The notes beneath the pieces are model-generated. The model was not told where the DNA came from and ran no database searches. It saw only the letters and a program-made list of their open reading frames with translations. Shown here piece after piece: positions 3,526 to 20,811 of a stretch of DNA of 43,251 bases. The stretch comes from a virus. How positions within the stretch are numbered: the stretch's first letter is position 1; the number at the start of each line of letters is the position of its first letter. The stretch covers positions 1-43,251 of the IMG/VR virus record IMGVR_UViG_3300044977_000143. One strand, 5' to 3'. A program made the position numbers and the translations under genes.

Positions 3526-4658
3526 CGGCGTCCCTTTCGCGCTTCCTCGGCCAGGCGCTGGCGGATGTTGCCGCCGTAGTAGGTGGGCTGCCCCGGTTCT
3601 TTTTCGCGTTCTTCGTCCTGGATCTTCGAGAGCCCCAGCATCGCGGTGGTCATGTCGTTCTCTTTGAACAGCTTGTCGACGCGCTCGGCGACGCGGCGCT
3701 GCAGGGGTTTCCGGGCCGGCTCGGGATAGGAAAGCAGCAGGTACTTCATGCAGTCGCGCGCGTGATCGTCTTTCTGGACGATGGCTTCGGAAGCGTTTCG
3801 GGTGAGCAGTTGCTGGGCGGTCAGTAACTCCCGGCGCGTGCGCATCAACTCCCACAGCAGGTTCGGGCAGTCCCATCCGTGCATTCCGTGGACCGGCCGC
3901 TCCGAGTAGTTCCGGCAAACGATCTTCACCGTGGGTTCGCGCTCGTCGAGATTCGCCCAGTGCGCGAGCAGGCGCGCCGCGAAGCTCACATCGGAGTGAT
4001 CTCCATGAAACGGTGAGAGAAAATCGATCCCGTTCTCGGCGTAAATCTCACTCAGTGATTTGGCTCGTTCGCCTCGGCGCACCGGCACATTGGCGTGAAT
4101 GTTGAGCGGGAAGATCGACGGATCGGCGTAGCAGTTCTCGAGCCTTCTGAGGTCGGGCATCTCGCGCAGACTGTCCGCGTGGTCCCAGATCTCGGCGCTC
4201 GGCTGGTAATACTCACCGCAGAAATAGTGCGTGCCCTCGAAGTCCGAGTAGCAGCGCTCCATCACGGTGGGGCTGGCGCGGCCATGATCGAAGCCGGCAT
4301 CCATCTTCCAGTCGGGTTCAGGCCGCCAGCGCGGATCTTCGATGACGATCTTTTTCCAGTGGGTCGTGAGTATCTCGGCGAAGACCAATTCTCCGCCGCC
4401 GGCTTCATCCATGATGTCCTGCTCACGGTCCCAGTCGGCTTGCGACGTGTACTTTTTCCGCTCCGCCTTTTTCCAGTCTGGATTCAAGTCCGGGTTTCGT
4501 TCGGGGTGGACGGAGTAGTGCAGCCGGACCACGGGGATTCCGCCTTCGGTGCGGCGGATGCGCTCTCCCGGACGCACTTCTACGTCGGCTTGTGCCGGCA
4601 GGTGCTTCGTCAGCTCCAGCGCCTTGCTGACATCACTCACTGGTTCGGCTCGAGCCAT
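3522..4658 (-). CDS. Terminase large subunit, nuclease part
   Basis: 378 residues, carrying the RNase H-like nuclease of a TerL that is split over two genes. The acidic residues expected for metal binding are visible: D120 and D124 in DAGFDHGR, D179 in YADPS, and D297/D298/D302 in DDHARDCMKYLL. The N-terminal GGIPVVRLHYS segment matches the usual linker between the two TerL domains. The ATG lies two bases after the TAG of the ATPase gene, in another frame. This domain would cut concatemeric DNA during headful packaging. The C-terminal tail is charged and may contact the portal. The family call is secure; whether the two polypeptides act as a complex is inferred. Confidence 0.85.
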   Translation of the reverse strand: MARAEPVSDVSKALELTKHLPAQADVEVRPGERIRRTEGGIPVVRLHYSVHPERNPDLNPDWKKAERKKYTSQADWDREQDIMDEAGGGELVFAEILTTHWKKIVIEDPRWRPEPDWKMDAGFDHGRASPTVMERCYSDFEGTHYFCGEYYQPSAEIWDHADSLREMPDLRRLENCYADPSIFPLNIHANVPVRRGERAKSLSEIYAENGIDFLSPFHGDHSDVSFAARLLAHWANLDEREPTVKIVCRNYSERPVHGMHGWDCPNLLWELMRTRRELLTAQQLLTRNASEAIVQKDDHARDCMKYLLLSYPEPARKPLQRRVAERVDKLFKENDMTTAMLGLSKIQDEEREKEPGQPTYYGGNIRQRLAEEARKGRR

Positions 4659-5986: not shown

Positions 5987-8900
5987 TTATTGGGCAACGG
6001 CTTCGGTGGCCGCTGCGGGCCGAGATTGCCAGCCATAGACGCGGGCGCGCGCTTTCTTCTCGCGCAGAATCTTTTCGAGCATCTTGATCTCTTTGTCGTC
6101 CTTGTCGTCGCGCGCGGCCTCGAGCACCTTTTCCACTTCGCCGATGGTGAAGTTGTGGACCGTGTCTTCGAGCGGATCGAGGCGCGCCCGGTGCTCCAGG
6201 CTCAGAATTTGGCGGTGCGTGAGCTCGTGATTTGCTTCGGCGTCCTGCAGGGGTTTCCGATTCCCCTGGCGGAGCTGGTCGAGGATCTCGCGGCGCTCCA
6301 CCCGGTTGGCGTGATCTTCCGGAGATTCGGCTTCGGTTCCGACTTTCGACGCGGCGATGTCGCCGGCGACCTTCTCCGCGCGGCTCTTGCCGAACTGAAC
6401 CCCGGCCTGCTGCCAGAAAAAACGCTTTTTCTGTGCTGAGGTTTCCGCCTTTTTGTATTGCCCGGGGACGCCGAAGTCGCCCTGGAGGAAGTGTCCAATC
6501 TGGTCGACCTGGGTTTGCCAGTCGGCGTGCGGATCGTAAATCTGGTGGCCGGTGAAGAGATCGTGATTGAATCCCAGCTCCACCGCGCCCTTCGTGATGG
6601 GTGACGGGGTAATGACTTTCTGGATGGCGGAGCTCGCATCCTGCTTGCCCTGAGCCACCTGTACGGCGGCGTCGACCAGCCCCGCCGGTCCGGAGCGACG
6701 CAGCCGCGCATGCTCGTCTCCGGTCAACTCTTTCGCGAGCTTGTCGAGGAAGGGGTAGAGAACCATGGTGATTAACCCCAGCATCGCCAGGCGGTCCCAG
6801 CCTTTGCCGGATTCCTCTGCTTTCGTGCGGCCCGGTGTTGGCTCCTGCGCGCCCAGCGCGGCTTTCCCCGCTTCGGCGAAACTCTTCAGCAGTCCGTAGT
6901 GGTAAGCGCCAAACCATGACACCATCGGATGCCCCATGGCTTTTGCGAGCCAGCGTTGGTCCAGGATGCGCGAGGGCAAGCGATATTCCGGGATGATGCG
7001 GCCCGCTTCTTTCAGCGCGTCGGCGAGCGAGACTCCGGGGTGCTCCATCTGGTACTGATAGGCGGACTGCAGATACATCACGTCGGAAGAGAACCAGGCG
7101 GCAATGGATGAGGGTTTATGGAGTAAGTTCAGCAGATTGCCGTGCTCGATTCCGAGGGACTTTGCCAGCTCCATCGCCCACGATTCTTTTTTGTCGAGGC
7201 CTTCGGCGATGCGCTCGAAGAATAGTTTGTGAACATCCTGCAGGTCTTCGCGATGAGACTGCAGGGCGCCGCCGGCGTCGAGTGCGGCCTTGAAATCGTC
7301 ATTCTTCGTGAGCACGGCGTTAATGGCCTTGTTGCCGCTCTTGTAGATGACGTTCCATTTCCACGGCGCGAAACCGGTCAAGCCCTTCTCGAATCCCCAG
7401 GAGATTGCGACGTTGGTTGGGTGGACGATCGGGTTGATCAGATAGGCGGCGCGCAAAAATCTTTGCGCGGTTTCGAGCACTCCAAACTGGCCCTTGTCGA
7501 GGCGTTCGGCGTAGTCGTTCAGAACTTCCGCGGTGCGGGGCTCGAAGTAGTAGCCATGGAGCTGGGGCAGGGAAGTGGCTTTCCAGCCTTTTGGCGGGTT
7601 GCCCGGTCCCTTCCAGGCAATCTCTTTGAATTCTGGCGAGGCTTTGTAGGCATCGAGAAAGCGCATGGCGCGCACGGCGCGGCTGAGTTGAATGTTCGAA
7701 GAGAGCAGCGACGCAAAGGCGGAGTGGTAATACTCGAGGTCCGTGTTCGCCTCGATCTCCTTGGTCGTTGCCTGCGTCACTTTCCAGTCGTATCCGTCCG
7801 GCCCTTCGACGATCTTTCCCTTTTCGTAGAACACGGAATTCGGCTCGCCCTCGGGGAAGGTCTCGTTTTCAACCGGAGAGCGGCCCTTGGCGTTTTTCAC
7901 TTCGCCCAATTCAGTCGGTTCGCCGTTCACCCACATCGTTGCTTTGCCCTGTTTGATCGAGACTACGCGGCGCTCGCCGTCCGGGGACTCGATGGCCATC
8001 ATGGTGCGGGTTTTGGTCTGCGGCGCCGAGGTCGAAAGGGTGCCGCGCTTGCCCACGCCGCGCACGCCGCGCGCGATGCGATCGAGCATCCCGCCTTTCG
8101 ACTTCACCGATCGGGAAACGTAGTTCTCGACTGGCACGCCGCCGTCGGTCAGTTCTTGATACAGGTCCGCATTCTGTTCATCGAGCGGCAGCGCGACGTC
8201 GTCGAGCCAATCGTCCTGGCGCGCATCGAGAGGGACGTTCTCCGGATCCTCGAGGTGGTCATAGATGGCGGCGTCGGATGCCTGCGTTAATCCCTGTTTC
8301 TTCAACTTCTCGAACGTGTCCTTGGCGCGGAGCATGTCGGCATGGGTGGAAGCGTCGAGGGTATCGAGGCCGCGCTGCAGATCGCGCGCAAGCTTCGTGG
8401 CGCGCGCAACTTCGCGGACGTAGTTGCCGACGGTGCCGGCGGCTTCCGCGACGGCGCGGGTTAGTTCGCCGGGGCGCGCTTCGCCGGATTCGCCTTTGAT
8501 CAGATTGCGGAGAACCGAATCTCCTTCCTCCGGTTCTTCCTCGCCGCTGCCCTTGTCCGCGCTGGCGTCGATGTCAGAAGCAACCTCTTGCTCGAGCGCG
8601 GCCTGGAATTCGTCAATGCCGAGGCGCTGATTGACTTCGCGCAACTCTCGCCGCGCGGCCGTGAGTTCCTTGGTGTCGAAAGCCTTGTCTTCCTTCGCGA
8701 CCTCATCGAGGCGCGCGATGCGGTCTTTGCGGAACTTTATGGCGTCGTCGAGCTCCTCAATCAAACCGGAAAGATTCCGCAGTACGCTTTCGGCGGAGTG
8801 CACGACGGAGGCGAGCGTCGCGGATGGCGCCGTGTAGGTGCCATTCGTCAGTCCCTCGATCGCTTCTGCGCCCCGCGCCTCGCCGCCCCAGGAGCGGTAG

Positions 8901-11900
8901 AGGGTCGGGTAGGGAACGCGGTATTCGAGATATTCGACCTGGTCGCCGCCCGGCTTCAGGGCGTTCACGTCCTTCAGTTTCGGCTCGACGATGATCGGCA
9001 ATCCGTTCAGCTTCAGGTGCAGGTTGCTGAGGGGGACCGGCTGCTGTTCTAGCCATTCTTTCGCTGTAGCGCGATCACCGAACTTCTCACCCAGGATCTC
9101 GAGACTGAACGTCTTCCCGTCCGGCCCGGTGGCCTCGCGGTGGTTTGCCGCGGCCTGCTCCATCGACGCTTTTCCCGCCTTGAAGCGCGCGACGCGATTC
9201 TCTTCGGCTTCGATCAATCCCTGGCGCTGACGGGCCTGCGCATCGTGCTGTTCAGAGAGGATCTCCTGTTTGCGGATCTTCGCCTCGAGCTCCATCTTCC
9301 GCTTGACGTCGGGATTGCCGGAAGCGATCGCTTTCATTTCCTCGTAAGACAAGACCGAGTCGGAGGCCGCGTCGGTGATCGTGTCACCCACATCTTTTCC
9401 CGCGAGCGCCTGCCAGATGAATTTCGCTTTCCCCTCGAGCGTCTGTCCCATGTAGGCGTCGAAGGAGTGCTCGGTCGCGTACCAGTAGAGTCTGACGACC
9501 GGGTTTGTGTTGCCCTGCCGCTCGATGCGGCCGGTGCGCTGCTCGAGCTCGCCCGGCTTCCAGGGGAAATCAACATGGTGCTCGGCGATGAGTTTCCGCT
9601 GGGCATTGGTGCCGGCACCCATCTTTTGTGTCGAGCCCAGCAGGACGCGGACTTTACCCTCGTTCACTTCATCGAAAAGGGCCAGCTTCTTGTCGGCGTT
9701 GTCGTAATCGTGGATGATCGCGATCTCATTCTTCGGGATGCCCTGCTTCACCAGCAGATCGCGGATCTCGTGGTAGAGGTTGAATTCTTCTTTCTTCGTG
9801 GCCGGGTTGGTGTAGCGGAAGCGATCGGCGAAGATCATCTGTGTGACCTTGTTGGCTTCGCCGTCCTTGTATTCCTTCACCACGTTCTTCACGACATCGT
9901 GAATCTTTGAATACTGGCCGGAGGCGGAAGGGTTCAGCAGCCGCGGGTCGGTTGCCGCCAGCCGGCCCTCGGTGACGACCGAGAGCATATTGTCTTCCTC
10001 GGGCTTCGGCTTGCTGAAGTACTCCATCTTCACGCGCTTGCCAACGTTGCCGGTCTTGGGGTCGGTGTACTCCTCCATCACGGGCTTGTTCGCGTCATCG
10101 AGCACCGGAACGCCTTCGCCGCGGATCGCCGCCGCACGACGAACCAGATTCCGCACGATCGGCTCAATATCAGGGTTTTTCACGGTGACGATCTTCGGGC
10201 CGCCGCCTTCGATCTTGGGGAGTAGCGCTTTCAGCTCCGGCAGATCCTCGTTGGTCTTCACGTCGGCGAAGGAGTTGAACATCCGTTGCAGTTCCTGGAC
10301 GTTGGTGAACTCGGCGAACTTCGACCGCGGTTTGTAGCTCTCGGCGTCCGGGGAAAGCTCCATCGCGGTGATGATCTTTCCGAAATTGGCGGCCCAGTCG
10401 TCGAAATAGCGGATCCCGGCCTTCTCGAGCACGTCGGGCGCGACGTAGCGGATCATGTTGTACATCTCCGCCATGGTGTTCTGCACCGGCGTGCCGGTCG
10501 CGAAGTAGACTCCCCGGTTATTGTTGCGCTCGAGGAGATAGTCAGTCTTCATCTTCAGCCGCGTGGCGCGCTTGGCGTTGCCCTGCGCGAGGCCGGCTAC
10601 GCGCTGCATCTTGGTGTAGAACAGCAAGTTCTTATATTCGTGAGCCTCGTCGACGAAGAGGGTGTCGATGCCGGTATCGTCGAAGTTGATGGCCTTGTCC
10701 GACTTCAGGTTGGCGAGCGAAGCGATCTTGGCCTCGAGGTTCGCCTTCGACTTTTCCATCTGCTTGACGGAGCGCTTCATCGCCCGGCTGGATCCGCGAT
10801 CCTGATAGCCGCGGCTTTGTGCTTCCATGCCGCGAATCGTCTCTTCCAGCTCGTCGAGGTCTTTTTCGAGCGTCTTACGCTGGCGTTCGGCCGAAATGTC
10901 CATCAGGTTGAAATGGGAGTGCGGCATGATGATGGCGTCCCAATCGTTGTTCGCCATCTTCGCCATGGCAATCTGGCGGTTCTTCGCGCTGAAATCGTCT
11001 TTCCCCACCACCATGACGTTCGCGCCCGGGTAGAGCTTCGTCCAGTCGCGCGCCCACTGCTCCACCAGGTGGTTCGGCACGGCGTAGAGAATCTTCTTGG
11101 CAAGCCCCAGCCGGCGCAGCTCCGCACCGCTCGCGATCATGTTGTAAGTCTTGCCGGCGCCGACGACCTGGGCAATCAGGCCACGGCCCTGCTGAACGTT
11201 GCGCCAGATCCCGTCCCGCTGGTGCGGCATAAACTGGCTGTCGCGCAAGACTGAGAGATTCGCGCCGGGGAACGTGAGATGGGAACCGTCCGCCTTCGGG
11301 GCGACCAGGTTGTTGTATTTGTCGTTGTAGAGCCGCGCCAGCTTCGGCGACCACTCAGCGTGATCCTTCATCCACTTCGAGAAGTTGTCGCTGAGTCTCT
11401 CCTGGAGTTCGCGCGCGGCGATCGTCCGTTGCTGGTTCACCACTTTCCGCTCCGCCTGCTTCCCGTCGTCGTTGACGTAGGTCTGCAGATCGTAGGAGGT
11501 CGGCTGCTTCAGGTTCAGCGCCAGTCCCATCAGGTCGGTCGCGGAGAATTCCGCATTGCCGTACTGACTGATGTTCTCGGCGGAGTCTCTCGTGTTGTCG
11601 ATGCTCCATGTGCCTGAATTGTTGGTGACCTTGACGTCGTGGGGTTGCTTCAGGAACTTGGTGAGAAAGTGCTGGGTGGCTTCGTTCGGGATCCAGGTCG
11701 CCCCAGGCCGCACGGCGATGCGCTCGATCGGCTTATCGGCCGGGATGACCTTTTCGAGTGCGTCGACGTTGGCCTGGTACTCCTTGTTTCCCTGCGCGAC
11801 GGCCGCTTTCGCGTCGGCGAGCTTATCCCGCACGTAGCCCGAGAGATAGTCGTCGGCCATCTTGTAGTCACCGCCGACCGGATCCCGGTAGACCAGGCCT

Positions 11901-14900
11901 TTGTCTTCGAGATCTTTCGCTAACTCCGGCAATTCCTTGCCCGAGAGTTGCGCCATGAACTCGAGGTCAGGCCGGCCGCGTTCGTTCAGCACCTGAAACA
12001 GCGCGTCCTTGGTGTTCGCCGACAGCGCGGTCAACTGCTCGCGCGGGAAGATGGTGCGGCGCGTGAAGATCTCCGCCGGCGTGGTCTTTTTGGTCGTCTT
12101 GTTGAATTGCTCGAGTGCAGCCAGGCGCGGGTAGTAGGGATCCTGACCGAAGACGTTCGAGGCCGCGGAGCTGCGTACCAGGCCGTGTTTGTCGATGTAG
12201 GCTTTGTAGCTCGAGAGCAACGCTTTTTGCTTCTGCTCCACCAGTTTGTTCCCGATGTCGTCGTTCGGGACCGTCTTCATTGTGTACATCAGGTCGGTGA
12301 GCGCGTCGCGCAGCTTGATGAGTTTCGTGATGCGATCTTTTTCTGCCGGCTTGGCTTCTCCGATGAAGGGATTCAGTAGAGTGGCGCCGTTTTTCTTTTG
12401 GTAAATCTGTCCTTCCGGACCAAGGAAGTAGTTGCCATCGATCAGGTTCTCAGGCGCCAGGTTCAGGGTCTCGGCAGGGAAGAGGCGCGTCGATTTGTAA
12501 TCGTCGATGACGTTCTTCGGAACGCGTTCGAGCGCTTCCTTTAGTTGCTCATCGAACGGCTTGTCTTTGTCCGGCAACAGGACGAGGTCGTTCGAGCCGT
12601 ACATTCTTCGGGAAATCGCAAGCTTGCCGAGCATGTTCTCGGGGTGCTTGTCGAAATACTCGTTCAGGTAGTCGGTCGCTTTGCCGCCGTCCTGCTCGTG
12701 CGGGGCTTCGACGGGAACGACTTTCTTGAAGGGCTCGCCTTCGCTTTCGACGCCAGGCGCGCGCTTCTGGAAGATCAGCAGGTCGGTCGTGACGTGCGTG
12801 CCGGCGGTTTTCTCGAAGGTCGTTGCCGGGAAGCGCAGCGCAAAGATCAGGTCGGCCTTGTTGGCCATGACCTCGCGGATCCGCTCGTTCGGTTTGTCGA
12901 GCGTCCCGGTCGAGGAGATCAGCGCCGCCACGCCGCCCGGGCGGAGCTTGTCGAGGGACTTCACGAGGAAGTAATCGTGGATGCGCGCCTTCAGCTTGGG
13001 ATAGTGCGGATCGAAGATTTCTTCGCCGAAGGGAACGTTTCCGATCACCATGTCGACGGAATTGTCCGGCAGCATCAGGTCGACGAAGTTCTTGTTGAAC
13101 AGGTTCGCCGACGGGTAAAGCAGCTTGGCGATGTTGAACGTGGTGGGATCGAGCTCGTTGCCGATCGCCTGACTCTTGCCGCGGATCGCCTTCGGCATCA
13201 TGCCGAAGAAGTTGCCGCTGCCCATCGAAGGCTCAAGCAGCGTCCCGCCGCTGAAACCAAGGCGTTTGGCGGCGTCCCACATGAAACGCACGATCTGCGG
13301 GGAAGTGAAATGCGCGTTGATGGTCGAGGCGCGGGCGCGCGTGATCTCATCCTCGCTCATCAACTCCTGCAACTGGCGATGGGCTTCAATCCATTTCTTC
13401 TGCTCGCCGTAGGGCGCATCGTAGGGCCGGAAAGTATGGGGTAGCGCGCCCCAGCCCACGTAATGAGCCAGTGCGTCCCGGTCTTCGTCGGTGAGTTTGG
13501 CTTCGCCGGAGAGGACTTTCTTGAGGATGTTGAGGGCTTTCAGGTTCCAGGCGAGGCGTTGGGTGGTGCCGGCGGAAACGCTGAAGTCTTCAGGGTGAGT
13601 AAACCAGTCGGCGTTCTTGCGGGAGGCTACGCTTTCTGTTCTTCGAGCTCCGCGTCCTCCGGCAGGCTCTCCGACGGCAGGAACAGATACTCGTTCGCCA
13701 GTTCCTGTGCCTGGTCCTGGCTCAACCCCTTCTTTTCCGCGTCCTGAAACACTCGGACTGCGTTCTCCGCCGCGCTGTCGAGGCGCTGGTTCAGTTGATT
13801 GCTCTTTTCGAGCGACTTCACCAGCTTGGGGTTCCACTCGCGCCAGTTCCGCTCCGCGTCCGCTCGCAGGACTGGGAACCTCGCGTCTTCCTTCAGTGGC
13901 AGGCTTGGGCTGTTCATGGCCGGCTCCGGGCTCTATTGTAAAGCCTTTTGGAGGCGATGGAGCAAGGTTTTCTTTCTCTGGGATGCTCTGGCCGCGGAAG
14001 GTGAAAGGGTGCTTTTTTCGGTAGGCTTGCTCTTTTTCAACCTTATTCAGGTCCTTGGTGAGCGCGGCCTTGGCGTTGTCTGGGATCCCCGGGGAGGCCA
14101 GCGCCGCGTTGATTTGCCTTGCGTGTGCGACCAGGGTCTCATCGCTGGCGTCTTTCAACTCGGCTTCGAGCGAGAGTTTGGTCTGCGGCGCCGCCGCTTC
14201 CTCCGGCTGCCCCTTACTGAGGCCGTGAGTCACGAAACTCGGCAAGACGTGACCGGTCTCGGACTTCTTCTCCGGGACGATCTGCGGGGTGACAGGCTTG
14301 AGCGTTTTCTCCTGCGGCTCACGAGACAGTTCTCCGGGTTTCACTACACGGATACCGCCCTGCTGATCGCGAATTTCAACTCCTTCTTGTCGAGTGACGG
14401 CGGCACCCGGCGGCCAGACCGGCTTCATCACGAGCGTTGCGTCGCCTTCAACCTTGACTCGCCGGCCCTCGTGGTAGACGAATTCTCCCTTTTTGAATCC
14501 GCCGGGGATCTCCTTCTCTTTCGGTTTTAGATCCTCCAGGTCGGTATGTACTCCGACATCCCCGAGCGCTCGCTGCCATCGGCTCCAGTCATCAGGCCAA
14601 GCGTTGTTTCCCCATTCACTCACCGCTTTCGTTGCGGCCGCGACGACAGCCTGTCTCCGATCGTCTTCACCTGGAAGGTTCAGGGCACGAGTCAGAGCGG
14701 CTTTTTGCTTCTTGTAGTCCGCCTGCGAGAATTCATCCTTGCGTGCTGCCGGCGTCTCCGGCTTCGCTTCCACCGGCTTGCTGCGCCAGGCTTCCCGCCG
14801 CGGCTCTGGCTTCTTTCCCTCAAGCTTCACCACCTGCTGCTGGCCCTGCTTGTCGGTGATGGCGACTTCGTCGACGGTGAATTTCTTGCCTTCGGTGACG

Positions 14901-17812
14901 CTCATCCCCACGTAGCGATCGGCCTTTTCTGGATCCACGTAGGCGATGGTCGCGTGCGGTTTGTATTCCTTGAATGAGGGTTCCGCGAATTCGCCGTGCT
15001 TCTCGAGCTCGGCGTTCAGCCGATGCAGTTCCGGGGCTTCGATCGGCGCGATGATCGGCGCTGCGCCTTCGCTGTGTTCACTGACGGGGAATTTCTCGGT
15101 CTTGCCTAGAGTCGCTTCGAACGGGGATTGTTCGGAGAGGAACTTGCGGACGCCTTCAGTGTCGTCACCCTTGATGCCGTAGCGGACGGTGACGTGATTG
15201 CCGCCTTCCCCAATTTCTTTTCCCTTGCCGGCGAGGTCAGAGTCCGAGATGCGCGCGCGGGCTGATTCTAGGGCTTTGGCGGCTTCACTCTCGGCGGGGA
15301 TGTTGGCTTGGGTGCTACCGAATTTGTACTTGGTTGCGGTCGCTGGAAGATTTGCAGGACTCGCCGCTCCGGATCGTAGTTGATCTCGACCGGGCTGTGC
15401 TGCTCCATGTTCTCCAACGACTCCGGCGTGAGTAGCTTCTTGAGGTCGAATTCCTGATGGAAGCTCATCGCCCGATTCTAATGCTCCGGGCCCACGTCCG
15501 GGAACAACGCCTCCGGCGACTCCTTCATCACCCGCAACAGTTCCTTGTCCGAGATGCTCAACTGATTCACCGGGACGCCCAGCCGGCTCGCCAGATCCCG
15601 GCGCAGATCCGGCAACAGGGCTTCCATTTGTAGGTCGATGATCTGCAGGTGCGTGAGCTTCGCCATGTGCGGATTCTACCTTTCCCGGTTCATTTGCCCC
15701 GCCTTTTTCTCCCAGCCCCTTGGTGATGAATCCGCCCGGCTTCGGCCGCTCCCCGAGTTCCATTTCCAGATTGCGGGAGTGGGTCACAATGATCGGCTTT
15801 TCACCCTTTGCTACCATCGCGTTCACGTCTGCGAGCGCCGCGTCTTGCCGGGTGCGCGCCTCGTTCCAACTCTCGCCGCCTTCCGGTTTCTTGTCCGGAT
15901 CGTTCTCGTAGCCTTCCCATATCGGCGTGGCCTCGCCAACTTTCAGGCCTTCGGTTTCCGGAACGTGCTGCGGGCGCAGGCGGGAATCTTCGGTGACGGG
16001 AATGCCGAGTTTCTTGCCGACGATCTCTGCAGTTTGTTTCGCGCGTGGAAGATCGGAGGTGACGATGGTGGTTGCGCCGGCGTCTTTTAGATCGTCGGCG
16101 AGTTTTGCGGCGGCTGCTTTCCCGCGCTCGTCGATCGGTTCGTCGGTCCAGCCGGCTACGGTTTCGTTCGCGCCCGCTTTGTCGAGCTTGGTTGCGCCGT
16201 GACGCGCGAAGATGATTTGACCCTTGGAGGCTTCCTCTTTCGTTGTGGACTCGATCGCGTTTTGAGGACCGCCAGCACCATTTGCCGGAGGAGTTTCAGC
16301 AGGCTTCGCCGTCGGCGCCGCGACAGCTTCGGGTTGAGGTGCAATGTTACTTGCGCCTGCATTGGCTGATTCTACTCCGGGAGTTGGGGCTGGGGTCGAG
16401 GGTCCTTCGGCGCTCCCCAGCCCCGGTGCGGGCGCGCCAGCCGCTTTCAATTTTGCCGCTCCGATCGACACTCGTTCGCCAGCATCCGTGACGACTCGCG
16501 TGATGTTCATCCGCGGGTGTGCGTGCGCGATCGTGCCTTCGCGGCCGTCGGGCAGTACTACTCGATCGCCTTTTTGGAACTTTGGAGATTCTTCTGCTGT
16601 TGCGGCCGCTGCCGTCGCAGTCTGCGGATTTTCGTCGAGCGTAAATCCGGCGGGAGGGGCGGGAACTGGTTCGCTTGCTGCTTTTTTGGCTTGCGCATCC
16701 TGGCGTCCGATTTCTTCGTTGATGTATTTCTGGGCGAGACTCTCGGCCTGCTTCTGGTTCGAGATGATTCGTATCTTGCCGTCTGGCCCGACAAACTTTC
16801 CTTGCTGCAGGAGCAATTCGGCGAGCTTGGCGTGGGTTTCAAGCGTAGCCTGGGCGCGCATCTCCTGCGGCAGCTTGGCGATCACATCTCCCACTTCGGC
16901 TACATCCTGGGCGGTGATTTCGTGCATGGGCAGCGGTGGCGCAGGTGCTCCCGGCGGAGGCGCGGGTGACGGCGGAGGAACGGTTTGCCCCTCGATCGTC
17001 GGTCCCTGTGTGGCCAGCGGTCCACCTCGCGGCGTCCGCGGGATCCTGATCTCTTTCGGATTCGCCGTCGTCCCACCCTTGAGAATGACTTCGGTTGGGG
17101 TGATCTCGATACCGCCGCCGACGCCTCCCCGCATGGTGACCTGGCCGGCCGGGTTGCCGGTTTCGACGTTGTGGCCGGTCTGGATCTCTGGGCGTAGGCC
17201 TGCGTGGAGCAACATCGGCAGGAGCCAGGCGAGGTTCGATGCGGACTCCTGCACTTCAGGGCGCGCGTGGAGCGCTTCGGCTCCCTTTTCTACCGCTTTG
17301 CTGGCGACGTAGCCTTCTCCCATACCTTTGACCATGGGGCTGGTGACTGCGCGGTAAATAGCGCTGCCCACGGTTGGGGCTTCCTCGACTGCGGCTCCGG
17401 CTTCGAGCGCCGCCTTTCCGATAATGGGCGAAGCGGCTTCCGCGGCATCGCTCGCCAGTCCCAAAGCGCCGGGAAGTCGCTCCCCGGGTGTGGTTACCTG
17501 CTCCAGGTGCTTGGTGGTCTTTACCGACGGCGTTGCGGCGACGGGCGTGCCGCTTTCGTAGCCGAGATCTCCGGAAAGAGCCCCGGCAACGACTCCAGCG
17601 CCACGTTTCCAAAGCGAAGGCTCTGGCGGCGCCGCGGCGGGCATATTTCCACTCCAACTCGGCCGGCGCTGGTTCATTGTGACCGGAGCCTGGTCGCTGT
17701 CGGCGTCGAGCATGAACCCTTTCGGCGGGGCAGGAATAGACGCAGGAGCAGCTCCTTCGTCCTCGAGGACGAATCCTTTGGGGGGAGCAGGGATGGCGGT
17801 GCTGAGACCCAC
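5987..17812 (-). CDS. Giant polyvalent protein: phosphatase, 2H phosphoesterase, adenine methyltransferase, helicase
   Basis: 3941 codons from a GTG start. Visible parts in order: PAPPxGF motifs near residues 8-14 and 27-33, another near 390; an SH3-like strand set (KGDRVVLPDGREGT); a histidine phosphatase at about 530-700 with ARHGAT (H538) and THSRN (H678); a 2H phosphoesterase at about 830-985 with HVTV (H873) and HATI (H953); a fourth PPKGF motif at 1291; an N6-adenine methyltransferase at about 1490-1690 with EPSMGSGNFF (near 1531) and IGNVPFGE (N1592); an SNF2-like helicase at about 2200-2800 with GAGKT (K2221), DEAH (D2388), ATGTPVQNT and QRTGRIERQGN (Q2758); then about 1100 mostly helical residues with a hydrophobic stretch near 3675. 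The methylase-helicase pair resembles DarB-type antirestriction proteins that enter with phage DNA. The gene lies between internal virion protein genes and terminase, fitting a packaged, injected protein. Low-complexity linkers separate the domains, and three hold nested frames. Confidence 0.85.
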   Translation of the reverse strand: MGLSTAIPAPPKGFVLEDEGAAPASIPAPPKGFMLDADSDQAPVTMNQRRPSWSGNMPAAAPPEPSLWKRGAGVVAGALSGDLGYESGTPVAATPSVKTTKHLEQVTTPGERLPGALGLASDAAEAASPIIGKAALEAGAAVEEAPTVGSAIYRAVTSPMVKGMGEGYVASKAVEKGAEALHARPEVQESASNLAWLLPMLLHAGLRPEIQTGHNVETGNPAGQVTMRGGVGGGIEITPTEVILKGGTTANPKEIRIPRTPRGGPLATQGPTIEGQTVPPPSPAPPPGAPAPPLPMHEITAQDVAEVGDVIAKLPQEMRAQATLETHAKLAELLLQQGKFVGPDGKIRIISNQKQAESLAQKYINEEIGRQDAQAKKAASEPVPAPPAGFTLDENPQTATAAAATAEESPKFQKGDRVVLPDGREGTIAHAHPRMNITRVVTDAGERVSIGAAKLKAAGAPAPGLGSAEGPSTPAPTPGVESANAGASNIAPQPEAVAAPTAKPAETPPANGAGGPQNAIESTTKEEASKGQIIFARHGATKLDKAGANETVAGWTDEPIDERGKAAAAKLADDLKDAGATTIVTSDLPRAKQTAEIVGKKLGIPVTEDSRLRPQHVPETEGLKVGEATPIWEGYENDPDKKPEGGESWNEARTRQDAALADVNAMVAKGEKPIIVTHSRNLEMELGERPKPGGFITKGLGEKGGANEPGKVESAHGEAHAPADHRPTNGSPVAGSAPGSGEPAGRPGESVEHLGQGTVAGDEGVAGGVVPGRGPGALESGDELPSGIRPQEATHAGVVGEHGAAQPGRDQLRSGAASPANLPATATKYKFGSTQANIPAESEAAKALESARARISDSDLAGKGKEIGEGGNHVTVRYGIKGDDTEGVRKFLSEQSPFEATLGKTEKFPVSEHSEGAAPIIAPIEAPELHRLNAELEKHGEFAEPSFKEYKPHATIAYVDPEKADRYVGMSVTEGKKFTVDEVAITDKQGQQQVVKLEGKKPEPRREAWRSKPVEAKPETPAARKDEFSQADYKKQKAALTRALNLPGEDDRRQAVVAAATKAVSEWGNNAWPDDWSRWQRALGDVGVHTDLEDLKPKEKEIPGGFKKGEFVYHEGRRVKVEGDATLVMKPVWPPGAAVTRQEGVEIRDQQGGIRVVKPGELSREPQEKTLKPVTPQIVPEKKSETGHVLPSFVTHGLSKGQPEEAAAPQTKLSLEAELKDASDETLVAHARQINAALASPGIPDNAKAALTKDLNKVEKEQAYRKKHPFTFRGQSIPEKENLAPSPPKGFTIEPGAGHEQPKPATEGRREVPSPASGRGAELARVEPQAGEVARKEQSTEPAPRQRGGERSPSVSGRGKEGVEPGPGTGTGERVSVPAVGEPAGGRGARRTESVASRKNADWFTHPEDFSVSAGTTQRLAWNLKALNILKKVLSGEAKLTDEDRDALAHYVGWGALPHTFRPYDAPYGEQKKWIEAHRQLQELMSEDEITRARASTINAHFTSPQIVRFMWDAAKRLGFSGGTLLEPSMGSGNFFGMMPKAIRGKSQAIGNELDPTTFNIAKLLYPSANLFNKNFVDLMLPDNSVDMVIGNVPFGEEIFDPHYPKLKARIHDYFLVKSLDKLRPGGVAALISSTGTLDKPNERIREVMANKADLIFALRFPATTFEKTAGTHVTTDLLIFQKRAPGVESEGEPFKKVVPVEAPHEQDGGKATDYLNEYFDKHPENMLGKLAISRRMYGSNDLVLLPDKDKPFDEQLKEALERVPKNVIDDYKSTRLFPAETLNLAPENLIDGNYFLGPEGQIYQKKNGATLLNPFIGEAKPAEKDRITKLIKLRDALTDLMYTMKTVPNDDIGNKLVEQKQKALLSSYKAYIDKHGLVRSSAASNVFGQDPYYPRLAALEQFNKTTKKTTPAEIFTRRTIFPREQLTALSANTKDALFQVLNERGRPDLEFMAQLSGKELPELAKDLEDKGLVYRDPVGGDYKMADDYLSGYVRDKLADAKAAVAQGNKEYQANVDALEKVIPADKPIERIAVRPGATWIPNEATQHFLTKFLKQPHDVKVTNNSGTWSIDNTRDSAENISQYGNAEFSATDLMGLALNLKQPTSYDLQTYVNDDGKQAERKVVNQQRTIAARELQERLSDNFSKWMKDHAEWSPKLARLYNDKYNNLVAPKADGSHLTFPGANLSVLRDSQFMPHQRDGIWRNVQQGRGLIAQVVGAGKTYNMIASGAELRRLGLAKKILYAVPNHLVEQWARDWTKLYPGANVMVVGKDDFSAKNRQIAMAKMANNDWDAIIMPHSHFNLMDISAERQRKTLEKDLDELEETIRGMEAQSRGYQDRGSSRAMKRSVKQMEKSKANLEAKIASLANLKSDKAINFDDTGIDTLFVDEAHEYKNLLFYTKMQRVAGLAQGNAKRATRLKMKTDYLLERNNNRGVYFATGTPVQNTMAEMYNMIRYVAPDVLEKAGIRYFDDWAANFGKIITAMELSPDAESYKPRSKFAEFTNVQELQRMFNSFADVKTNEDLPELKALLPKIEGGGPKIVTVKNPDIEPIVRNLVRRAAAIRGEGVPVLDDANKPVMEEYTDPKTGNVGKRVKMEYFSKPKPEEDNMLSVVTEGRLAATDPRLLNPSASGQYSKIHDVVKNVVKEYKDGEANKVTQMIFADRFRYTNPATKKEEFNLYHEIRDLLVKQGIPKNEIAIIHDYDNADKKLALFDEVNEGKVRVLLGSTQKMGAGTNAQRKLIAEHHVDFPWKPGELEQRTGRIERQGNTNPVVRLYWYATEHSFDAYMGQTLEGKAKFIWQALAGKDVGDTITDAASDSVLSYEEMKAIASGNPDVKRKMELEAKIRKQEILSEQHDAQARQRQGLIEAEENRVARFKAGKASMEQAAANHREATGPDGKTFSLEILGEKFGDRATAKEWLEQQPVPLSNLHLKLNGLPIIVEPKLKDVNALKPGGDQVEYLEYRVPYPTLYRSWGGEARGAEAIEGLTNGTYTAPSATLASVVHSAESVLRNLSGLIEELDDAIKFRKDRIARLDEVAKEDKAFDTKELTAARRELREVNQRLGIDEFQAALEQEVASDIDASADKGSGEEEPEEGDSVLRNLIKGESGEARPGELTRAVAEAAGTVGNYVREVARATKLARDLQRGLDTLDASTHADMLRAKDTFEKLKKQGLTQASDAAIYDHLEDPENVPLDARQDDWLDDVALPLDEQNADLYQELTDGGVPVENYVSRSVKSKGGMLDRIARGVRGVGKRGTLSTSAPQTKTRTMMAIESPDGERRVVSIKQGKATMWVNGEPTELGEVKNAKGRSPVENETFPEGEPNSVFYEKGKIVEGPDGYDWKVTQATTKEIEANTDLEYYHSAFASLLSSNIQLSRAVRAMRFLDAYKASPEFKEIAWKGPGNPPKGWKATSLPQLHGYYFEPRTAEVLNDYAERLDKGQFGVLETAQRFLRAAYLINPIVHPTNVAISWGFEKGLTGFAPWKWNVIYKSGNKAINAVLTKNDDFKAALDAGGALQSHREDLQDVHKLFFERIAEGLDKKESWAMELAKSLGIEHGNLLNLLHKPSSIAAWFSSDVMYLQSAYQYQMEHPGVSLADALKEAGRIIPEYRLPSRILDQRWLAKAMGHPMVSWFGAYHYGLLKSFAEAGKAALGAQEPTPGRTKAEESGKGWDRLAMLGLITMVLYPFLDKLAKELTGDEHARLRRSGPAGLVDAAVQVAQGKQDASSAIQKVITPSPITKGAVELGFNHDLFTGHQIYDPHADWQTQVDQIGHFLQGDFGVPGQYKKAETSAQKKRFFWQQAGVQFGKSRAEKVAGDIAASKVGTEAESPEDHANRVERREILDQLRQGNRKPLQDAEANHELTHRQILSLEHRARLDPLEDTVHNFTIGEVEKVLEAARDDKDDKEIKMLEKILREKKARARVYGWQSRPAAATEAVAQ
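13627..13917 (-). CDS. Small protein nested inside the giant gene, other frame
   Basis: 96 residues on the same strand as the giant gene but shifted by one base. The ATG has GGAG about 9 bases upstream and an in-frame stop just before it. The product looks like a normal folded, helical protein (ADAERNWREWNPKLVKSLEK, then QDQAQELANEYLFLPSES), reminiscent of small phage proteins ending in a 'YLFLPxE' segment. By hand count about 81% of its third codon positions are G or C. The giant frame over the same bases has only about 35% and reads as a Gly/Pro/Arg/Glu-rich linker. Codon use therefore favours this frame as the selected one. It sits immediately after the fourth PPKGF motif and before the methyltransferase. 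Function unknown. Confidence 0.65.
   Translation of the reverse strand: MNSPSLPLKEDARFPVLRADAERNWREWNPKLVKSLEKSNQLNQRLDSAAENAVRVFQDAEKKGLSQDQAQELANEYLFLPSESLPEDAELEEQKA
15268..15468 (-). CDS. Small protein nested inside the giant gene (second of a pair)
   Basis: 66 residues, in the same shifted frame as the other two nested genes, starting ten bases after the stop of its partner. The first 43 residues (MSFHQEFDLKKLLTPESLEN, then VEINYDPERRVLQIFQR) look like a genuine folded protein. The last 22 residues are Pro/Ser/Lys-rich and coincide with the point where the giant frame begins its 2H phosphoesterase domain, so they are probably only an overlap tail. No good ribosome-binding site is visible; translation may depend on coupling to the partner. 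No function is recognised. Confidence 0.5.
   Translation of the reverse strand: MSFHQEFDLKKLLTPESLENMEQHSPVEINYDPERRVLQIFQRPQPSTNSVAPKPTSPPRVKPPKP
15478..15666 (-). CDS. Small helical protein nested inside the giant gene (first of a pair)
   Basis: 62 residues in the frame shifted by one base from the giant gene, over giant residues of about 716-778. The product is a regular amphipathic helical protein (LTHLQIIDLQMEALLPDLRR, then LSISDKELLRVMKESPEALF). By hand count roughly 87% of its third positions are G or C, against about a third for the giant frame, which here is a Gly/Ala/Pro/Glu-rich linker between the histidine phosphatase and 2H domains. An in-frame stop precedes the ATG, and a purine-rich GGGAAAGG lies somewhat far upstream. 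No family is recognised. Confidence 0.55.
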   Translation of the reverse strand: MAKLTHLQIIDLQMEALLPDLRRDLASRLGVPVNQLSISDKELLRVMKESPEALFPDVGPEH

Positions 17813-17819
17813 GGTTTAG

Positions 17820-18392
17820 CTAGTCGCTGCCTTGACTGGCTTCGTTTGCCTGTCCTTGCTGCGGTTCGGAGGCGTCGTCGGCGGCCGCGGCAGACTCAAG
17901 GGCGGCGATCACTCCGTCCGAGCTTTTCGTTCCTTCGTCGGCCATCTTCTGCAGTTTCTCGTCTGTGCCTTCGGTGCTCGCTTCCCACTTCGCGCGCAGT
18001 AGTTCGTTCTCGCGGCGTTCGGCGTCGAGTTGGGCGCGGGACGCATCGAGGGCTTGCAGCAGTCGAGCCGAGTTCTCTGAATCACTCAACTCTTCCCAGA
18101 GGATTTCCTCTGCCTCATCGTGGCTTGCGTGGGGAACGTCGTGCGCGATCGCGATCGAGTTCTGGTAGTCCGCGCCGTTCATGGCCTTCCCTGTGGGGTA
18201 GAGCAGCGACACGCGCGGGAAGTCCTCGCCTTCGACGTGGACCTCGAGGAGAACGATCGCGTCCACCACTTCGAGTTTGGTGGGAACGGGGATGTGGTGA
18301 CGGGTTGCTTGCCCCGCGCTGCCCGGTCTCAGTCGGGCGTGGCCGGTCGCGATCCGGTGCTGGAATTTAACTGCTTTGCCGAGGAAATCCAT
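17820..18392 (-). CDS. Virion-associated protein with coiled-coil C-terminus, function unknown
   Basis: 190 residues. AAGGAG lies 11 bases before the ATG. The first 90 residues look beta-rich (LEVVDAIVLLEVHVEGEDFP, RVSLLYPTG). Residues of about 95-140 are a charged helix or coiled coil (LLQALDASRAQLDAERRENE). The Ala/Ser/Gln-rich end is disordered. It lies between a coiled-coil protein gene and the giant polyvalent gene with tight spacing, so it is probably part of the same injected or internal-virion set. I do not recognise its family. Confidence 0.7.
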   Translation of the reverse strand: MDFLGKAVKFQHRIATGHARLRPGSAGQATRHHIPVPTKLEVVDAIVLLEVHVEGEDFPRVSLLYPTGKAMNGADYQNSIAIAHDVPHASHDEAEEILWEELSDSENSARLLQALDASRAQLDAERRENELLRAKWEASTEGTDEKLQKMADEGTKSSDGVIAALESAAAADDASEPQQGQANEASQGSD

Positions 18393-18395
18393 AAA

Positions 18396-19799
18396 CTATT
18401 TCGCTCCTTGAGATTGAGGTACGAGCATCCACTGCCCGGTTGATTTGTAGTAGCCGATCTTGGTCTTGCCGTCCGACGCGGTCTTCGCCGGCGTCTCACC
18501 CTTCGGTCCCATCGCCGTGGGAACACCTTCATCTTGTTTGGCGGCAGGTTTCGCGGCTGGTCCTGGCGCAGCGCTTGATGCAGGAGGAGCCGCGGCCGAT
18601 TGCGTTCCCGGCTTCGCGCCATTTCCGCGCCACGATTCCACGTCCTGATGTGTGGCTTCGCCGCCGGCGGCGTTGATCTCCGCTTCGTAAGCGTCCTGGG
18701 CGTCTTGCTGGGCCTGTTTGAAATTGTCCTCGGCGGTTTTGCGCGCCTCCGGGTCACTCCCCGCCAGTTCGGTTTCTCGGTCGTAGGCGGTCTTTGCTTT
18801 TTGCAACGCCGTGGCTTTCCTCGACTCGATCGCGACCGACTGGGAGGGCTTGGCTTTGTTGCCTTTATCGACCTGCCGGTCGCGCGCGTCCGCGAGCTGC
18901 TTGCGGATGTCGATCATCGCGTGCTGCATCTCGTACCACTCGGCGTCGCGGGTTTTCTTCTCTTCCAGTTCTTTTTGTTTCTCGTCGAGCAGGTCCTGAG
19001 CCTTCTCGATGTTTCCCTTGGCGACTTCGTCGCGTACCTTCTCGATCGCGTCTTTGTATTCGGAGTTTGTGATGGCGTTGTAGCGCTCGATGTCGAGCTG
19101 CCCTTGTTCGTGCGCGGTTCGCTCGGCCGCCTCCGCGAGTGGCGTGCCTTCCTTGTCCATCTGCAGTCGCTGGGTCCACGGCGCGAGCGCTCGTTCACGG
19201 TTTGCGGTCGCCTCGTTCAGCCGCCGGTTGGTCACTTCGCTCGCGACATTGCCGGCGTTCGATGGATCCTTGAGTTGCGTGGCTCCGAGTGCGAAACCCG
19301 CGAGCCGCTCCCACCATTTGGGCCGCAGTTGCTGCGGATCGAGCCGGTTCGCCTGGTCCGCTTGCTGGTAGCCGGAAAGATCAGATTGATACTGCTTCAG
19401 TGCCGGATTCAGATACGACGCCAGGTCGGGACTCTTCGGCATGGCCGGCGCGGCGGGTTGCGCGGCCGGCTGCGGGCTGATCCGCGAGAGCATGCCGCGA
19501 CTCTCAAGGTCATCGGTTGAACCTGTTGCGGCCGGACCTTTCGGTACGGAGGGATCGTCGGTGACTGGAGGAACTTTTCCCGGCGTCGCGGGCGCGACGT
19601 TCGCGCCAGTTGGCCCGAGATTTGTACTGGCTGCAGGGAGAGGCTGTCCCGTCGGCGGTTGCGCCACGACGGGGGATGCCATGGGCGGCCTGCCGGCTAC
19701 CGGAAGCCCTGCTCCAAGCGGTGCGCCGGGAGGGGCAGTCTGGCGTTTCAGCGCCGCAACCAACTCCGCCGGCATTGGTGGAACGATGAAGCCGCCCAT
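18396..19799 (-). CDS. Probable internal virion protein with long coiled coil
   Basis: 467 residues. GGGAGG lies five bases before the ATG. The N-terminal 130 residues are Pro/Ala/Gly-rich. A WWERLAGFALGATQL segment follows at roughly 165-180. Then comes a long charged helix (IEKVRDEVAKGNIEKAQDLL, DEKQKELEEKKTRDAEWYEM) reaching about residue 380, another Ala/Pro-rich linker, and a short C-terminal module (GYYKSTGQWMLVPQ). Length, composition and position between the Hint protein and the giant protein suggest an internal or ejected virion component. No enzymatic motif is visible. Confidence 0.7.
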   Translation of the reverse strand: MGGFIVPPMPAELVAALKRQTAPPGAPLGAGLPVAGRPPMASPVVAQPPTGQPLPAASTNLGPTGANVAPATPGKVPPVTDDPSVPKGPAATGSTDDLESRGMLSRISPQPAAQPAAPAMPKSPDLASYLNPALKQYQSDLSGYQQADQANRLDPQQLRPKWWERLAGFALGATQLKDPSNAGNVASEVTNRRLNEATANRERALAPWTQRLQMDKEGTPLAEAAERTAHEQGQLDIERYNAITNSEYKDAIEKVRDEVAKGNIEKAQDLLDEKQKELEEKKTRDAEWYEMQHAMIDIRKQLADARDRQVDKGNKAKPSQSVAIESRKATALQKAKTAYDRETELAGSDPEARKTAEDNFKQAQQDAQDAYEAEINAAGGEATHQDVESWRGNGAKPGTQSAAAPPASSAAPGPAAKPAAKQDEGVPTAMGPKGETPAKTASDGKTKIGYYKSTGQWMLVPQSQGAK

Positions 19800-19800
19800 T

Positions 19801-20811
19801 CTAGCCTCCCACCTCCACTGCCAGCGCTCGCTCTTTCATTAATCGCTCGCAGGCTTCATCGCTGGCCACATGGCCGACTCCGTAAGCCCAGACTCCGTCC
19901 GCCCGGTAGCTGTGTGATCCTTTAGTTAAAACGCTGAAGACCCGGGCCACTCCCGCCGGTTCGACGCGGATTACCCTGCTCGGGCCGAGCGCCGTCATCA
20001 CAAACATGCCAAACGATTCAAGGGCGAGCGTGAAGCTGTCGCCCGGCGAGGCAAACGCATGCGTCCACGAATTGCGCGTCCGGCAGCCGTTTTCTGTGAC
20101 CACCCGGATACACGGGTGGTAGCTCGACTGAATTCCCTCGATCTCCTGCGCTTCGTCGTCGAGGCCCGCGATTCGATCTCCGATCGCTAGGCTCTCGACC
20201 GGCTTCTCGCTGCCGTCCGCCATCAGGTAGAGGGAACCTTCGGCGGGACATGCTGCTCCTCCGGCCGCTCCGCCCGTCGCCGAGATTGCCGAAGCCGCGA
20301 GCTGCATGTTGGCCAGGTCTTCCTGCGTCAGATCGTTCAGCGCGGACGATTGGCCTCTCTGCGCCGTCGAATACAGTCCGGTTTGCAGTCCCGCCGCCTG
20401 CAGCGGTTGCTGCGCCAGGTTCAACTGGTAGCCGATATTCTTCGTCCAGTCGCCCGCGGTTTGTTCCGCCCCTAACTGATTCCCCAGGCGCATCTTCTGC
20501 AGCGCCAGATTCGAGATTGCTCCGTTGGTCGCGGTTGAGTTCTCTCCGCCGGTCCGCACCTGGTTCGAACGGATCTGCGCGTCGGCGGCGTTGTTCTGTT
20601 GATCGAGCGCTCCGGAACGGAGTTTGTTGACCGCTGCGAGGTACTGCGGGTTGAGGTAGGGGTCGGCTCCGACCATCTTCCCCGAGCGCAAATTGGCCTG
20701 GTCCGTACTCGCTTGGGTGAGGTCCCCCTGCGCATTGTTGTAGGACTGAGTGGCCTGGGTGCCGTAAGTGTTGTTGGCCGTCTGTTGCGAACTTCCTGGT
20801 CTTTGCGGCAT
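19801..20811 (-). CDS. Virion protein with C-terminal Hint (intein-like) domain
   Basis: 336 residues. Residues 1-185 are Asn/Gln/Ala-rich and helical, like an internal or tail-tip structural protein (LGAEQTAGDWTKNIGYQLN). A Hint fold starts at C188: ACPAEGSLYLMADGSEKP followed by VESLAIGDRIAG, the classic N-terminal splicing block. A TxxH-like element follows at WTHAF (H251), and VFSVLTKGSHSYRADGV is the later beta block. The expected C-terminal His-Asn pair plus nucleophile is absent, as the chain ends ERALAVEVGG. Complete splicing is therefore unlikely; N-terminal thioester cleavage, as in Hedgehog-type or bacterial intein-like proteins, is possible. The gene follows the GNAT-like gene. 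Confidence 0.75.
   Translation of the reverse strand: MPQRPGSSQQTANNTYGTQATQSYNNAQGDLTQASTDQANLRSGKMVGADPYLNPQYLAAVNKLRSGALDQQNNAADAQIRSNQVRTGGENSTATNGAISNLALQKMRLGNQLGAEQTAGDWTKNIGYQLNLAQQPLQAAGLQTGLYSTAQRGQSSALNDLTQEDLANMQLAASAISATGGAAGGAACPAEGSLYLMADGSEKPVESLAIGDRIAGLDDEAQEIEGIQSSYHPCIRVVTENGCRTRNSWTHAFASPGDSFTLALESFGMFVMTALGPSRVIRVEPAGVARVFSVLTKGSHSYRADGVWAYGVGHVASDEACERLMKERALAVEVGG

What the first reader, a model, noticed from the sequence alone, without database searches (positions are those of the whole stretch)
5987..17812. A 3941-residue injected-type polyvalent protein that may defeat several defence systems
Seen: one frame joins a histidine phosphatase (H538, H678), a 2H phosphoesterase (H873, H953), an adenine methyltransferase (NVPF at 1592), an SNF2-type helicase (K2221, D2388) and about 1100 helical residues. 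Known: polyvalent proteins such as P1 DarB enter with DNA and block restriction, and the anti-CBASS enzyme Acb1 is a 2H phosphodiesterase that cuts cyclic nucleotide signals. Inference: the 2H and histidine-phosphatase domains remove nucleotide second messengers (CBASS, Thoeris or Pycsar type), while the methylase-helicase protects entering DNA. Having both phosphoesterases fused to a DarB-like core is the strongest candidate here for a new system.
Basis: partly seen in the sequence, partly recalled or inferred. Interest (0 to 1): 0.85.

Follow-up and report, generated by a model that had tools for sequence, protein, structure and literature searches.

The report
Cysteine-free giant ejected polyvalent phage protein
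A soil phage encodes one 3,941-residue protein, built without a single cysteine, that is probably shot into the bacterium with the DNA carrying a DNA-protecting methylase-helicase plus two phosphate-ester enzymes, one of them a relative of enzymes that erase bacterial alarm molecules.

Summary
Domains: histidine phosphatase 533-682, 2H phosphoesterase 826-1002, DarB-like methylase-SNF2 core 1297-2924, conserved C-terminal module 2783-3941. It is a podovirus giant polyvalent protein of the Bcep22/JC1 DarB-like type. 2H domains in such proteins, and their possible use against nucleotide signalling, were already proposed in 2017; the histidine phosphatase was not described there. New support for ejection: the protein has 0 cysteines (about 37-43 expected). 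Across 44 giant 2H polyvalent ORFs the rate is 0.024% against 1.11% for neighbouring ORFs; the two genes just upstream are cysteine-free too, as in the N4 and JC1 ejection trios. The 2H domain looks fully active (9 invariant columns in 65 relatives, all around the two HxT motifs), and Acb1 is its best solved sequence relative; but it misses Pfam's Acb1 cut-off and its fold equally resembles RNA-end enzymes, so the substrate is open. The phosphatase keeps R-H-R-H, but a proline sits where PhoE has its proton-donor glutamate. It is found in only three related contigs. Verdict: ordinary delivery class, new cargo combination.

The parts
5987..17812 (-). whole polyvalent ORF, 3941 aa, GTG start, 0 cysteines
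16256..17812 (-). residues 1-519: low-complexity Pro/Ala/Gly-rich N-terminus with three PAPPxGF repeats and a ~80-aa conserved segment (about 296-380) shared with other giants
15680..16255 (-). residues 520-711: histidine phosphatase, branch 1 (R537, H538, R590, H678 kept; P614 aligned with the PhoE proton-donor Glu)
14807..15337 (-). residues 826-1002: 2H phosphoesterase (HVTVRY at H873, HATIAY at H953)
9041..13924 (-). residues 1297-2924: DarB-like N6-adenine methylase + SNF2-type ATPase core
13028..13039 (-). methylase motif IV, N1592-V-P-F
11150..11152 (-). Walker A lysine K2221
10649..10651 (-). DEAH-box D2388
5990..9466 (-). residues 2783-3941: C-terminal module shared by giants with different enzyme cores; candidate packaging/ejection module
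17820..18392 (-). 190-aa cysteine-free ORF just upstream; homologous to the gene just upstream of the giant in L017 (same contig as L003); by position like JC1 gp67 / N4 gp52
18396..19799 (-). 467-aa cysteine-free ORF upstream; by position like JC1 gp68 / N4 gp51

Best explanation
This is the giant third ejection protein of a short-tailed phage, probably of Acidobacteriota. It is packaged in the head, threaded out through the tail after two smaller cysteine-free ejection proteins, crosses the oxidising periplasm without risk of disulfides, and refolds at or in the cytoplasm next to the entering DNA. Its conserved C-terminal module is probably the packaging/ejection part; the other modules are exchangeable cargo. 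The DarB-like methylase-SNF2 core protects entering DNA from restriction. The 2H domain is an active metal-independent phosphodiesterase that most probably cleaves a host nucleotide signal (Acb1-like), giving protection before any phage gene is expressed. The histidine phosphatase is a divergent companion acting on a phosphorylated small molecule or protein. Shown by sequence: domains, catalytic motifs, selection, cysteine exclusion, synteny. Inferred: ejection in this phage, all substrates, anti-defence role.
For: Class: PHROG DarB-like E=0; 118 phage records match the core, among them many phages with ~60-kb genomes; MCP matches a podovirus capsid model, 32.6 bits, below its cut-off. Virion: the related JC1 gp69 (4,515 aa) found by MS with 51 unique peptides, PMC9144972. 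Ejection: 0 Cys in 3,941 aa, about 37-43 expected, P=2.6e-19 at the window rate; 44 giant 2H ORFs have 32 Cys in 132,395 aa against 1,252 in 112,862 aa in neighbouring ORFs, 44 of 44 lower; inside the 2H domain 0/6,577 in giants against 23/3,867 in short proteins, although the tree forces at least 9 switches between contexts. Upstream ORFs: 32 of 33 without Cys. N4 vRNAP, gp51, gp52 and JC1 gp69, gp68, gp67 all have 0 Cys, P1 DarB has 9; PMC3715699 links Cys absence in the vRNAPs of N4-like phages to passage through tail/periplasm. 2H: 9 invariant columns in 65 relatives = the two HxT motifs and flanks; AF2 pLDDT 94.5; best PDB sequence match Acb1 9q2g, 3.4e-6; 58 of 65 members match Pfam Acb1 at E<=0.01. 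Signal theme: other 2H giants carry RelA/SpoT-like or GGDEF domains upstream of 2H.
Against: The window 2H scores 22.6 bits against the Acb1 cut-off of 27, and matches the general PF13563 better. Foldseek ranks plant CPDase and Usb1 (RNA-end enzymes) level with the penguinpox cGAMP PDE and above Acb1. A proline replaces the expected proton-donor Glu of the phosphatase. No proteomics exists for this phage, and the C-terminal module has no characterised relative. None of the ten annotated-phage DarB-like proteins examined carries 2H or the phosphatase, so neither is needed for the DarB function.
Confidence: 0.55

Rival explanations
1. The 2H (with or without the phosphatase) works on RNA rather than on signals: as a Usb1-like RNase or a CPDase that opens 2',3'-cyclic phosphate ends, with the phosphatase removing the resulting phosphate, so that cleaved tRNA is repaired or host RNA is degraded.
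For: Top folds are CPDase 1jh6 and Usb1 6pfq; PMC5512222 prefers an RNase or 2'-5' oligoadenylate role for this 2H type; one scanned 2H ORF also has an RNase domain, PBECR3.
Against: By sequence profile Acb1 is the best solved relative, CPDase weaker; PMC5512222 never saw these 2H domains together with RNA ligases; frequent partners are RelA/SpoT-like and GGDEF domains.
Confidence: 0.25
2. The histidine phosphatase is a protein or N-P bond phosphatase (SixA-like or Sts-like) that resets host phospho-signalling, independent of the 2H domain.
For: The position of the PhoE proton-donor Glu is Pro in all three copies; N-P bonds need no such donor (general knowledge of SixA). Animal Sts/UBASH3 proteins also fuse 2H and HP, and their HP targets a tyrosine kinase, PMC10218301. 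Weak SixA match, 1.9e-4.
Against: Closest solved relatives are small-molecule phosphatases: PhoE, GpgP; CobC E=2.3e-16 beats SixA.
Confidence: 0.2
3. The 2H and phosphatase modules are passengers without function, carried along by recombination.
For: 2H is strongly mosaic: 86% identical between window and L007 while the core is 36%; the phosphatase is rare and lacks a usual catalytic residue.
Against: Both HxT motifs invariant in 65 sequences; dN/dS 0.13-0.16 against 0.35-0.38 in linkers; the R-H-R-H phosphate pocket is kept in all three copies.
Confidence: 0.08
4. The protein is made late but not ejected; it works only in the infected cell or in assembly.
For: P1 DarB is linked to head morphogenesis (literature) and has normal cysteine; no proteomics exists for this phage.
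Against: Cysteine exclusion in the protein, its upstream partners and the class; JC1 gp69 in virions.
Confidence: 0.06

Closest known systems
DarB-like antirestriction giants of Bcep22/JC1-type podoviruses (JC1 gp69, PEp14, LASTA, VvAW1)
   Same: methylase-SNF2 core about 32-37% identical, 3600-4900 aa, 0-1 Cys, cysteine-free genes upstream, late-gene position
   Different: the ten examined lack both the histidine phosphatase and the 2H domain
2H-containing polyvalent proteins of Iyer et al. 2017 (PMC5512222)
   Same: 2H domain in a multidomain transferred protein; counter-signalling role already suggested
   Different: no histidine phosphatase described there ('phosphatase' 0 occurrences); cysteine not discussed
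Acb1 (anti-CBASS 2H phosphodiesterase)
   Same: HxT/HxT tetrad; best PDB sequence relative (9q2g, 3.4e-6); aromatic F908 and mostly aromatic residue 947 align with base-stacking W74 and F107
   Different: below the Pfam Acb1 cut-off; a domain of a giant ejected protein, not a small gene product made in the cell; Acb1 lid residues E141/W147 could not be placed
N4 virion RNA polymerase with gp51/gp52
   Same: giant cysteine-free third ejection protein after two smaller cysteine-free ones
   Different: cargo is an RNA polymerase; no homology sought or found
Phage P1 DarB
   Same: methylase motif NVPF, Walker A, DarB arrangement
   Different: 9 Cys in 2255 aa, no 2H or phosphatase
Animal Sts/UBASH3 (TULA) proteins
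   Same: 2H phosphodiesterase and histidine phosphatase in one chain (PMC10218301)
   Different: opposite domain order, UBA and SH3 domains, cellular signalling; probably convergent

Membership tests
Polyvalent proteins (PMC5512222) | several unrelated catalytic domains in one large protein of an invasive element | tested here: met
   four catalytic domains by Pfam/PHROG in a viral contig
Polyvalent proteins (PMC5512222) | protein is transferred with the DNA | not testable with these tools
   indirect only: Cys exclusion, synteny, MS of the JC1 homologue
DarB-like methylase-helicase | N6-adenine methylase motif IV followed by SNF2 Walker A/DEAH | tested here: met
   N1592VPF, K2221, D2388; phrog_10089 E=0
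DarB-like methylase-helicase | antirestriction activity | not testable with these tools
   needs plating on restricting hosts
2H phosphoesterase superfamily (PF13563) | two HxTx motifs and fold, curated cut-off 27 bits | tested here: met
   45.7 bits, H873/H953 invariant, AF2 94.5, Foldseek hits all 2H
Acb1 anti-CBASS (PF23474) | score above the family cut-off of 27 bits | tested here: not met
   15.6 bits whole protein, 22.6 bits domain alone
Acb1 anti-CBASS (PF23474) | cleavage of cyclic di/trinucleotides | not testable with these tools
   enzyme assay needed
Histidine phosphatase branch 1 (PF00300) | RHG, second Arg, second His of the phosphate pocket | tested here: met
   R537/H538, R590, H678; 93.8 bits against 21.7
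Histidine phosphatase branch 1 (PF00300) | proton-donor Glu at the PhoE E83 position | tested here: not met
   P614 in window, Pro in L003 and L006; another acid nearby (E619/E621) may serve
N4/T7-type ejection-protein trio | small, medium and giant cysteine-free genes in a row | tested here: met
   467, 190 and 3941 aa, all 0 Cys; the sizes match N4 and JC1, but the medium gene comes before the small one here
N4/T7-type ejection-protein trio | sequence homology to known ejection proteins | tested here: not met
   no blastp match of the 467- and 190-aa ORFs to JC1 gp64/67/68 or N4 gp51

The most novel reading that the evidence does not exclude
The phosphatase and the 2H domain are a two-step signal eraser delivered with the DNA: 2H linearises a cyclic nucleotide alarm to a 3'-phosphate product (as Acb1 does) and the adjacent phosphatase removes that phosphate, so immunity is disarmed before any phage gene is expressed. 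The two travel as a cassette between unrelated helicase cores (DarB-type in window/L003, Strawberry-notch-type in L006).
Probability: 0.15. Interest if true: 0.8.

Novelty: new variant of a known kind. Interest (0 to 1): 0.55.

Why it matters
If right, these phages carry anti-signalling enzymes pre-made in the particle, so nucleotide-based immunity could be blunted at time zero, unlike Acb1, which must be expressed. The class-wide absence of cysteine, also inside domains whose short relatives have it, gives a simple computable test of which phage proteins are threaded through the periplasm. I found this stated for N4-type polymerases and a few similar large proteins, not for DarB-like or 2H polyvalent giants. 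It turns 'possibly injected' into a testable call for many giant proteins.

Tried and rejected
Phosphatase relatives: the viral-contig scan gave only the two known contigs, the genome-contig scan none; GenBank phages and plasmids gave only housekeeping-type phosphoglycerate mutases. PAPPKGF repeats as a class-wide motif: only in window and L003, dropped. Deciding the 2H substrate by fold: not possible, all 2H subfamilies score alike. Highest-scoring PDB hits of the phosphatase profile to designer PPR proteins are artefacts of a repeated helix. A Gram-positive contrast for cysteine was unclear: Streptococcus phage 1/1820. Considered Apyc1/Tad homology: Apyc1 is an MBL-fold metal enzyme, and neither domain here resembles that. 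Homology of the upstream genes to N4/JC1 ejection proteins: none found by blastp.

Full report
Observation. The 3,941-aa frame at 5987-17812 is on the minus strand and is stop-free from a GTG. Pfam gives histidine phosphatase 533-682 (1.5e-26), 2H 869-990 (1.1e-9), SNF2 (1.5e-7) and ResIII (4.7e-7); PHROG gives DarB-like antirestriction over 1297-2924 with E=0. A second contig, L003, has a colinear 4,156-aa protein. Nei-Gojobori dN/dS between the two is 0.06 (core), 0.10 (C-terminus), 0.13 (2H) and 0.16 (phosphatase), against 0.35-0.38 in two linkers; dS is near saturation, so only the ranking should be used.

Setting. The record is a 43,251-base virus contig, probably incomplete, since the L003 contig is 71 kb. 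A capsid gene at 30700-31974 matches a podovirus capsid model below its cut-off. The DarB-like core matches 118 phage records, among them podoviruses with ~60-kb genomes such as JC1. The same 2H domain occurs in Acidobacteriota genome bins and in Tunturiibacter phage Tunturi_5, so an Acidobacteriota host is likely (inference). JC1 gp69, the DarB-like giant of a Burkholderia podovirus, was found in virions with 51 unique peptides (PMC9144972).

Ejection signature. The protein has no cysteine; 37 are expected from codon-position base composition and about 43 at the rate of the other ORFs (P=2.6e-19). I extended this to 44 giant (1200 aa or more) non-redundant 2H ORFs from viral contigs: 32 Cys in 132,395 residues (0.024%) against 1,252 in 112,862 (1.11%) for other ORFs of the same loci, lower in 44 of 44 loci. 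Short 2H proteins have 0.62%. Inside the 2H domain alone it is 0 of 6,577 in giants and 23 of 3,867 in short proteins. On the 2H tree the giant/short label needs 14 changes, at least 9 of them forced by well-supported branches, so cysteine goes with context rather than with one lineage. The first ORF of at least 250 aa upstream lacks cysteine in 32 of 33 loci. The same holds for N4 vRNAP/gp51/gp52 and JC1 gp69/gp68/gp67, but not for P1 DarB (9 of 2255), and for the DarB-like giants of PEp14, VvAW1, Atu_ph08, LASTA, Y7, USP_25 and Itty13 (0-1 Cys in 3640-4914 aa). For N4-like phages absence of cysteine was linked to passage through tail and periplasm (PMC3715699). Caveats: large genes of one class share descent outside the 2H domain; the neighbour sets are mechanical ORFs; the upstream genes have no sequence match to known ejection proteins.

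Modularity. The C-terminal module 2783-3941 is shared with L006 (about 54% identical), whose methylase-helicase is of another type (Eco57I methylase + Strawberry-notch helicase), and with L007 (63%), whose core is only 36% identical while its 2H is 86% identical. This suggests a constant delivery part and exchangeable cargo (inference). The phosphatase and 2H occur together, in the same order, in window, L003 and L006, on two different helicase cores. No other locus fetched by the searches has the phosphatase.

2H domain. Sixty-five relatives have nine invariant columns: H873, T875, Y878, G879, P952, H953, T955, Y958, V959. The AF2 model has pLDDT 94.5. By sequence profile the best solved relative is Acb1 of Burkholderia phage BCSR5 (3.4e-6), then YjcG (7e-4), CPDase (3e-3) and FBB1 Acb1 (7e-3). 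58 of 65 members match Pfam Acb1 at E<=0.01, but the window domain scores 22.6 bits, under the cut-off of 27. Two Acb1 base-stacking positions align with F908 and residue 947, aromatic in 64 of 65 and 48 of 65 members; the first is also Phe in YjcG, so it is weak evidence. Foldseek ranks CPDase, Usb1, penguinpox cGAMP PDE, LigT and Acb1 close together; the nearest viral folds are other phage 2H proteins. The chemistry is thus well supported and the substrate is not. Other 2H giants have a RelA/SpoT-like domain upstream of 2H in at least eight loci (two above the Pfam cut-off) or a GGDEF domain (two, both above), which favours a nucleotide-signal theme (inference).

Phosphatase. Nearest solved relatives are PhoE and GpgP, by sequence and by fold (the model is moderate, pLDDT 71.7). 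The phosphate pocket R-H-R-H is kept, but 'RLREIHLGDWEG' of PhoE aligns with 'RLRPQHVPETEG', so the usual proton-donor Glu is Pro, identically in all three copies. That PhoE E83 is the donor is general knowledge, not tested here. The domain may use another acid (E619 or E621), prefer a good leaving group, or be weak. This does not support a claim that it removes cyclic nucleotide messengers; histidine phosphatases are phosphomonoesterases or mutases.

What is known. PMC5512222 described the methylase-SNF2 dyad with DarB as archetype, named 2H among polyvalent domains, and proposed that it acts as an RNase or degrades nucleotide signals. New here, as far as the held library shows: the histidine phosphatase in such a protein, its pairing with 2H, and cysteine exclusion for DarB-like/2H giants. 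One parallel: animal Sts/UBASH3 proteins also combine 2H and histidine phosphatase in one chain (PMC10218301), probably by convergence.

Scores. Ejected polyvalent protein: about 0.9. DarB-type protection: about 0.8. 2H acts on nucleotide signals: about 0.5. Phosphatase takes part in the same pathway: about 0.2-0.25. Combined statement: 0.55.

Noticed in passing
44 giant 2H ORFs in viral loci; window 5987-17812: Class-wide absence of cysteine in giant polyvalent proteins and in the gene just upstream, also within a domain (2H) whose short relatives have cysteine.
   Followed up: yes
L028, L029, L032, L024, L018, L035, L019, L005 upstream of 2H: RelA/SpoT-like domain upstream of the 2H domain, often directly before it; could synthesise or sense alarmone-like nucleotides next to a phosphodiesterase.
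   Followed up: partly
L018:8729-9331, L049:7854-8453: GGDEF domain (above the Pfam cut-off) between N-terminus and 2H in giant polyvalent proteins; no GG[DE][ED][FL] motif was found by regex.
   Followed up: partly
window 19801-20811, residues ~188-336: Hint/intein-like domain (CPAEGSLYLMADGSEKPVE..., PF05203 3e-4, below cut-off) at the C-terminus of a small late protein next to the ejection genes.
   Followed up: partly
L014 (Tunturi_5 gp321, 1362 aa): A cultured Tunturiibacter (Acidobacteriota) phage has the same 2H domain in a protein annotated NUDIX, with a stretch resembling the ART region of L009: a tractable system to test.
   Followed up: partly
window 20816-21265: 149-aa ORF that reads like a GNAT acetyltransferase (no Pfam match), in the same relative position as acetyltransferase genes upstream of DarB-like giants in JC1, LASTA and Itty13.
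   Followed up: no
window 41537-42184: Serine recombinase (Resolvase, 1.3e-40) near the right end of the contig, suggesting a temperate phage.
   Followed up: no
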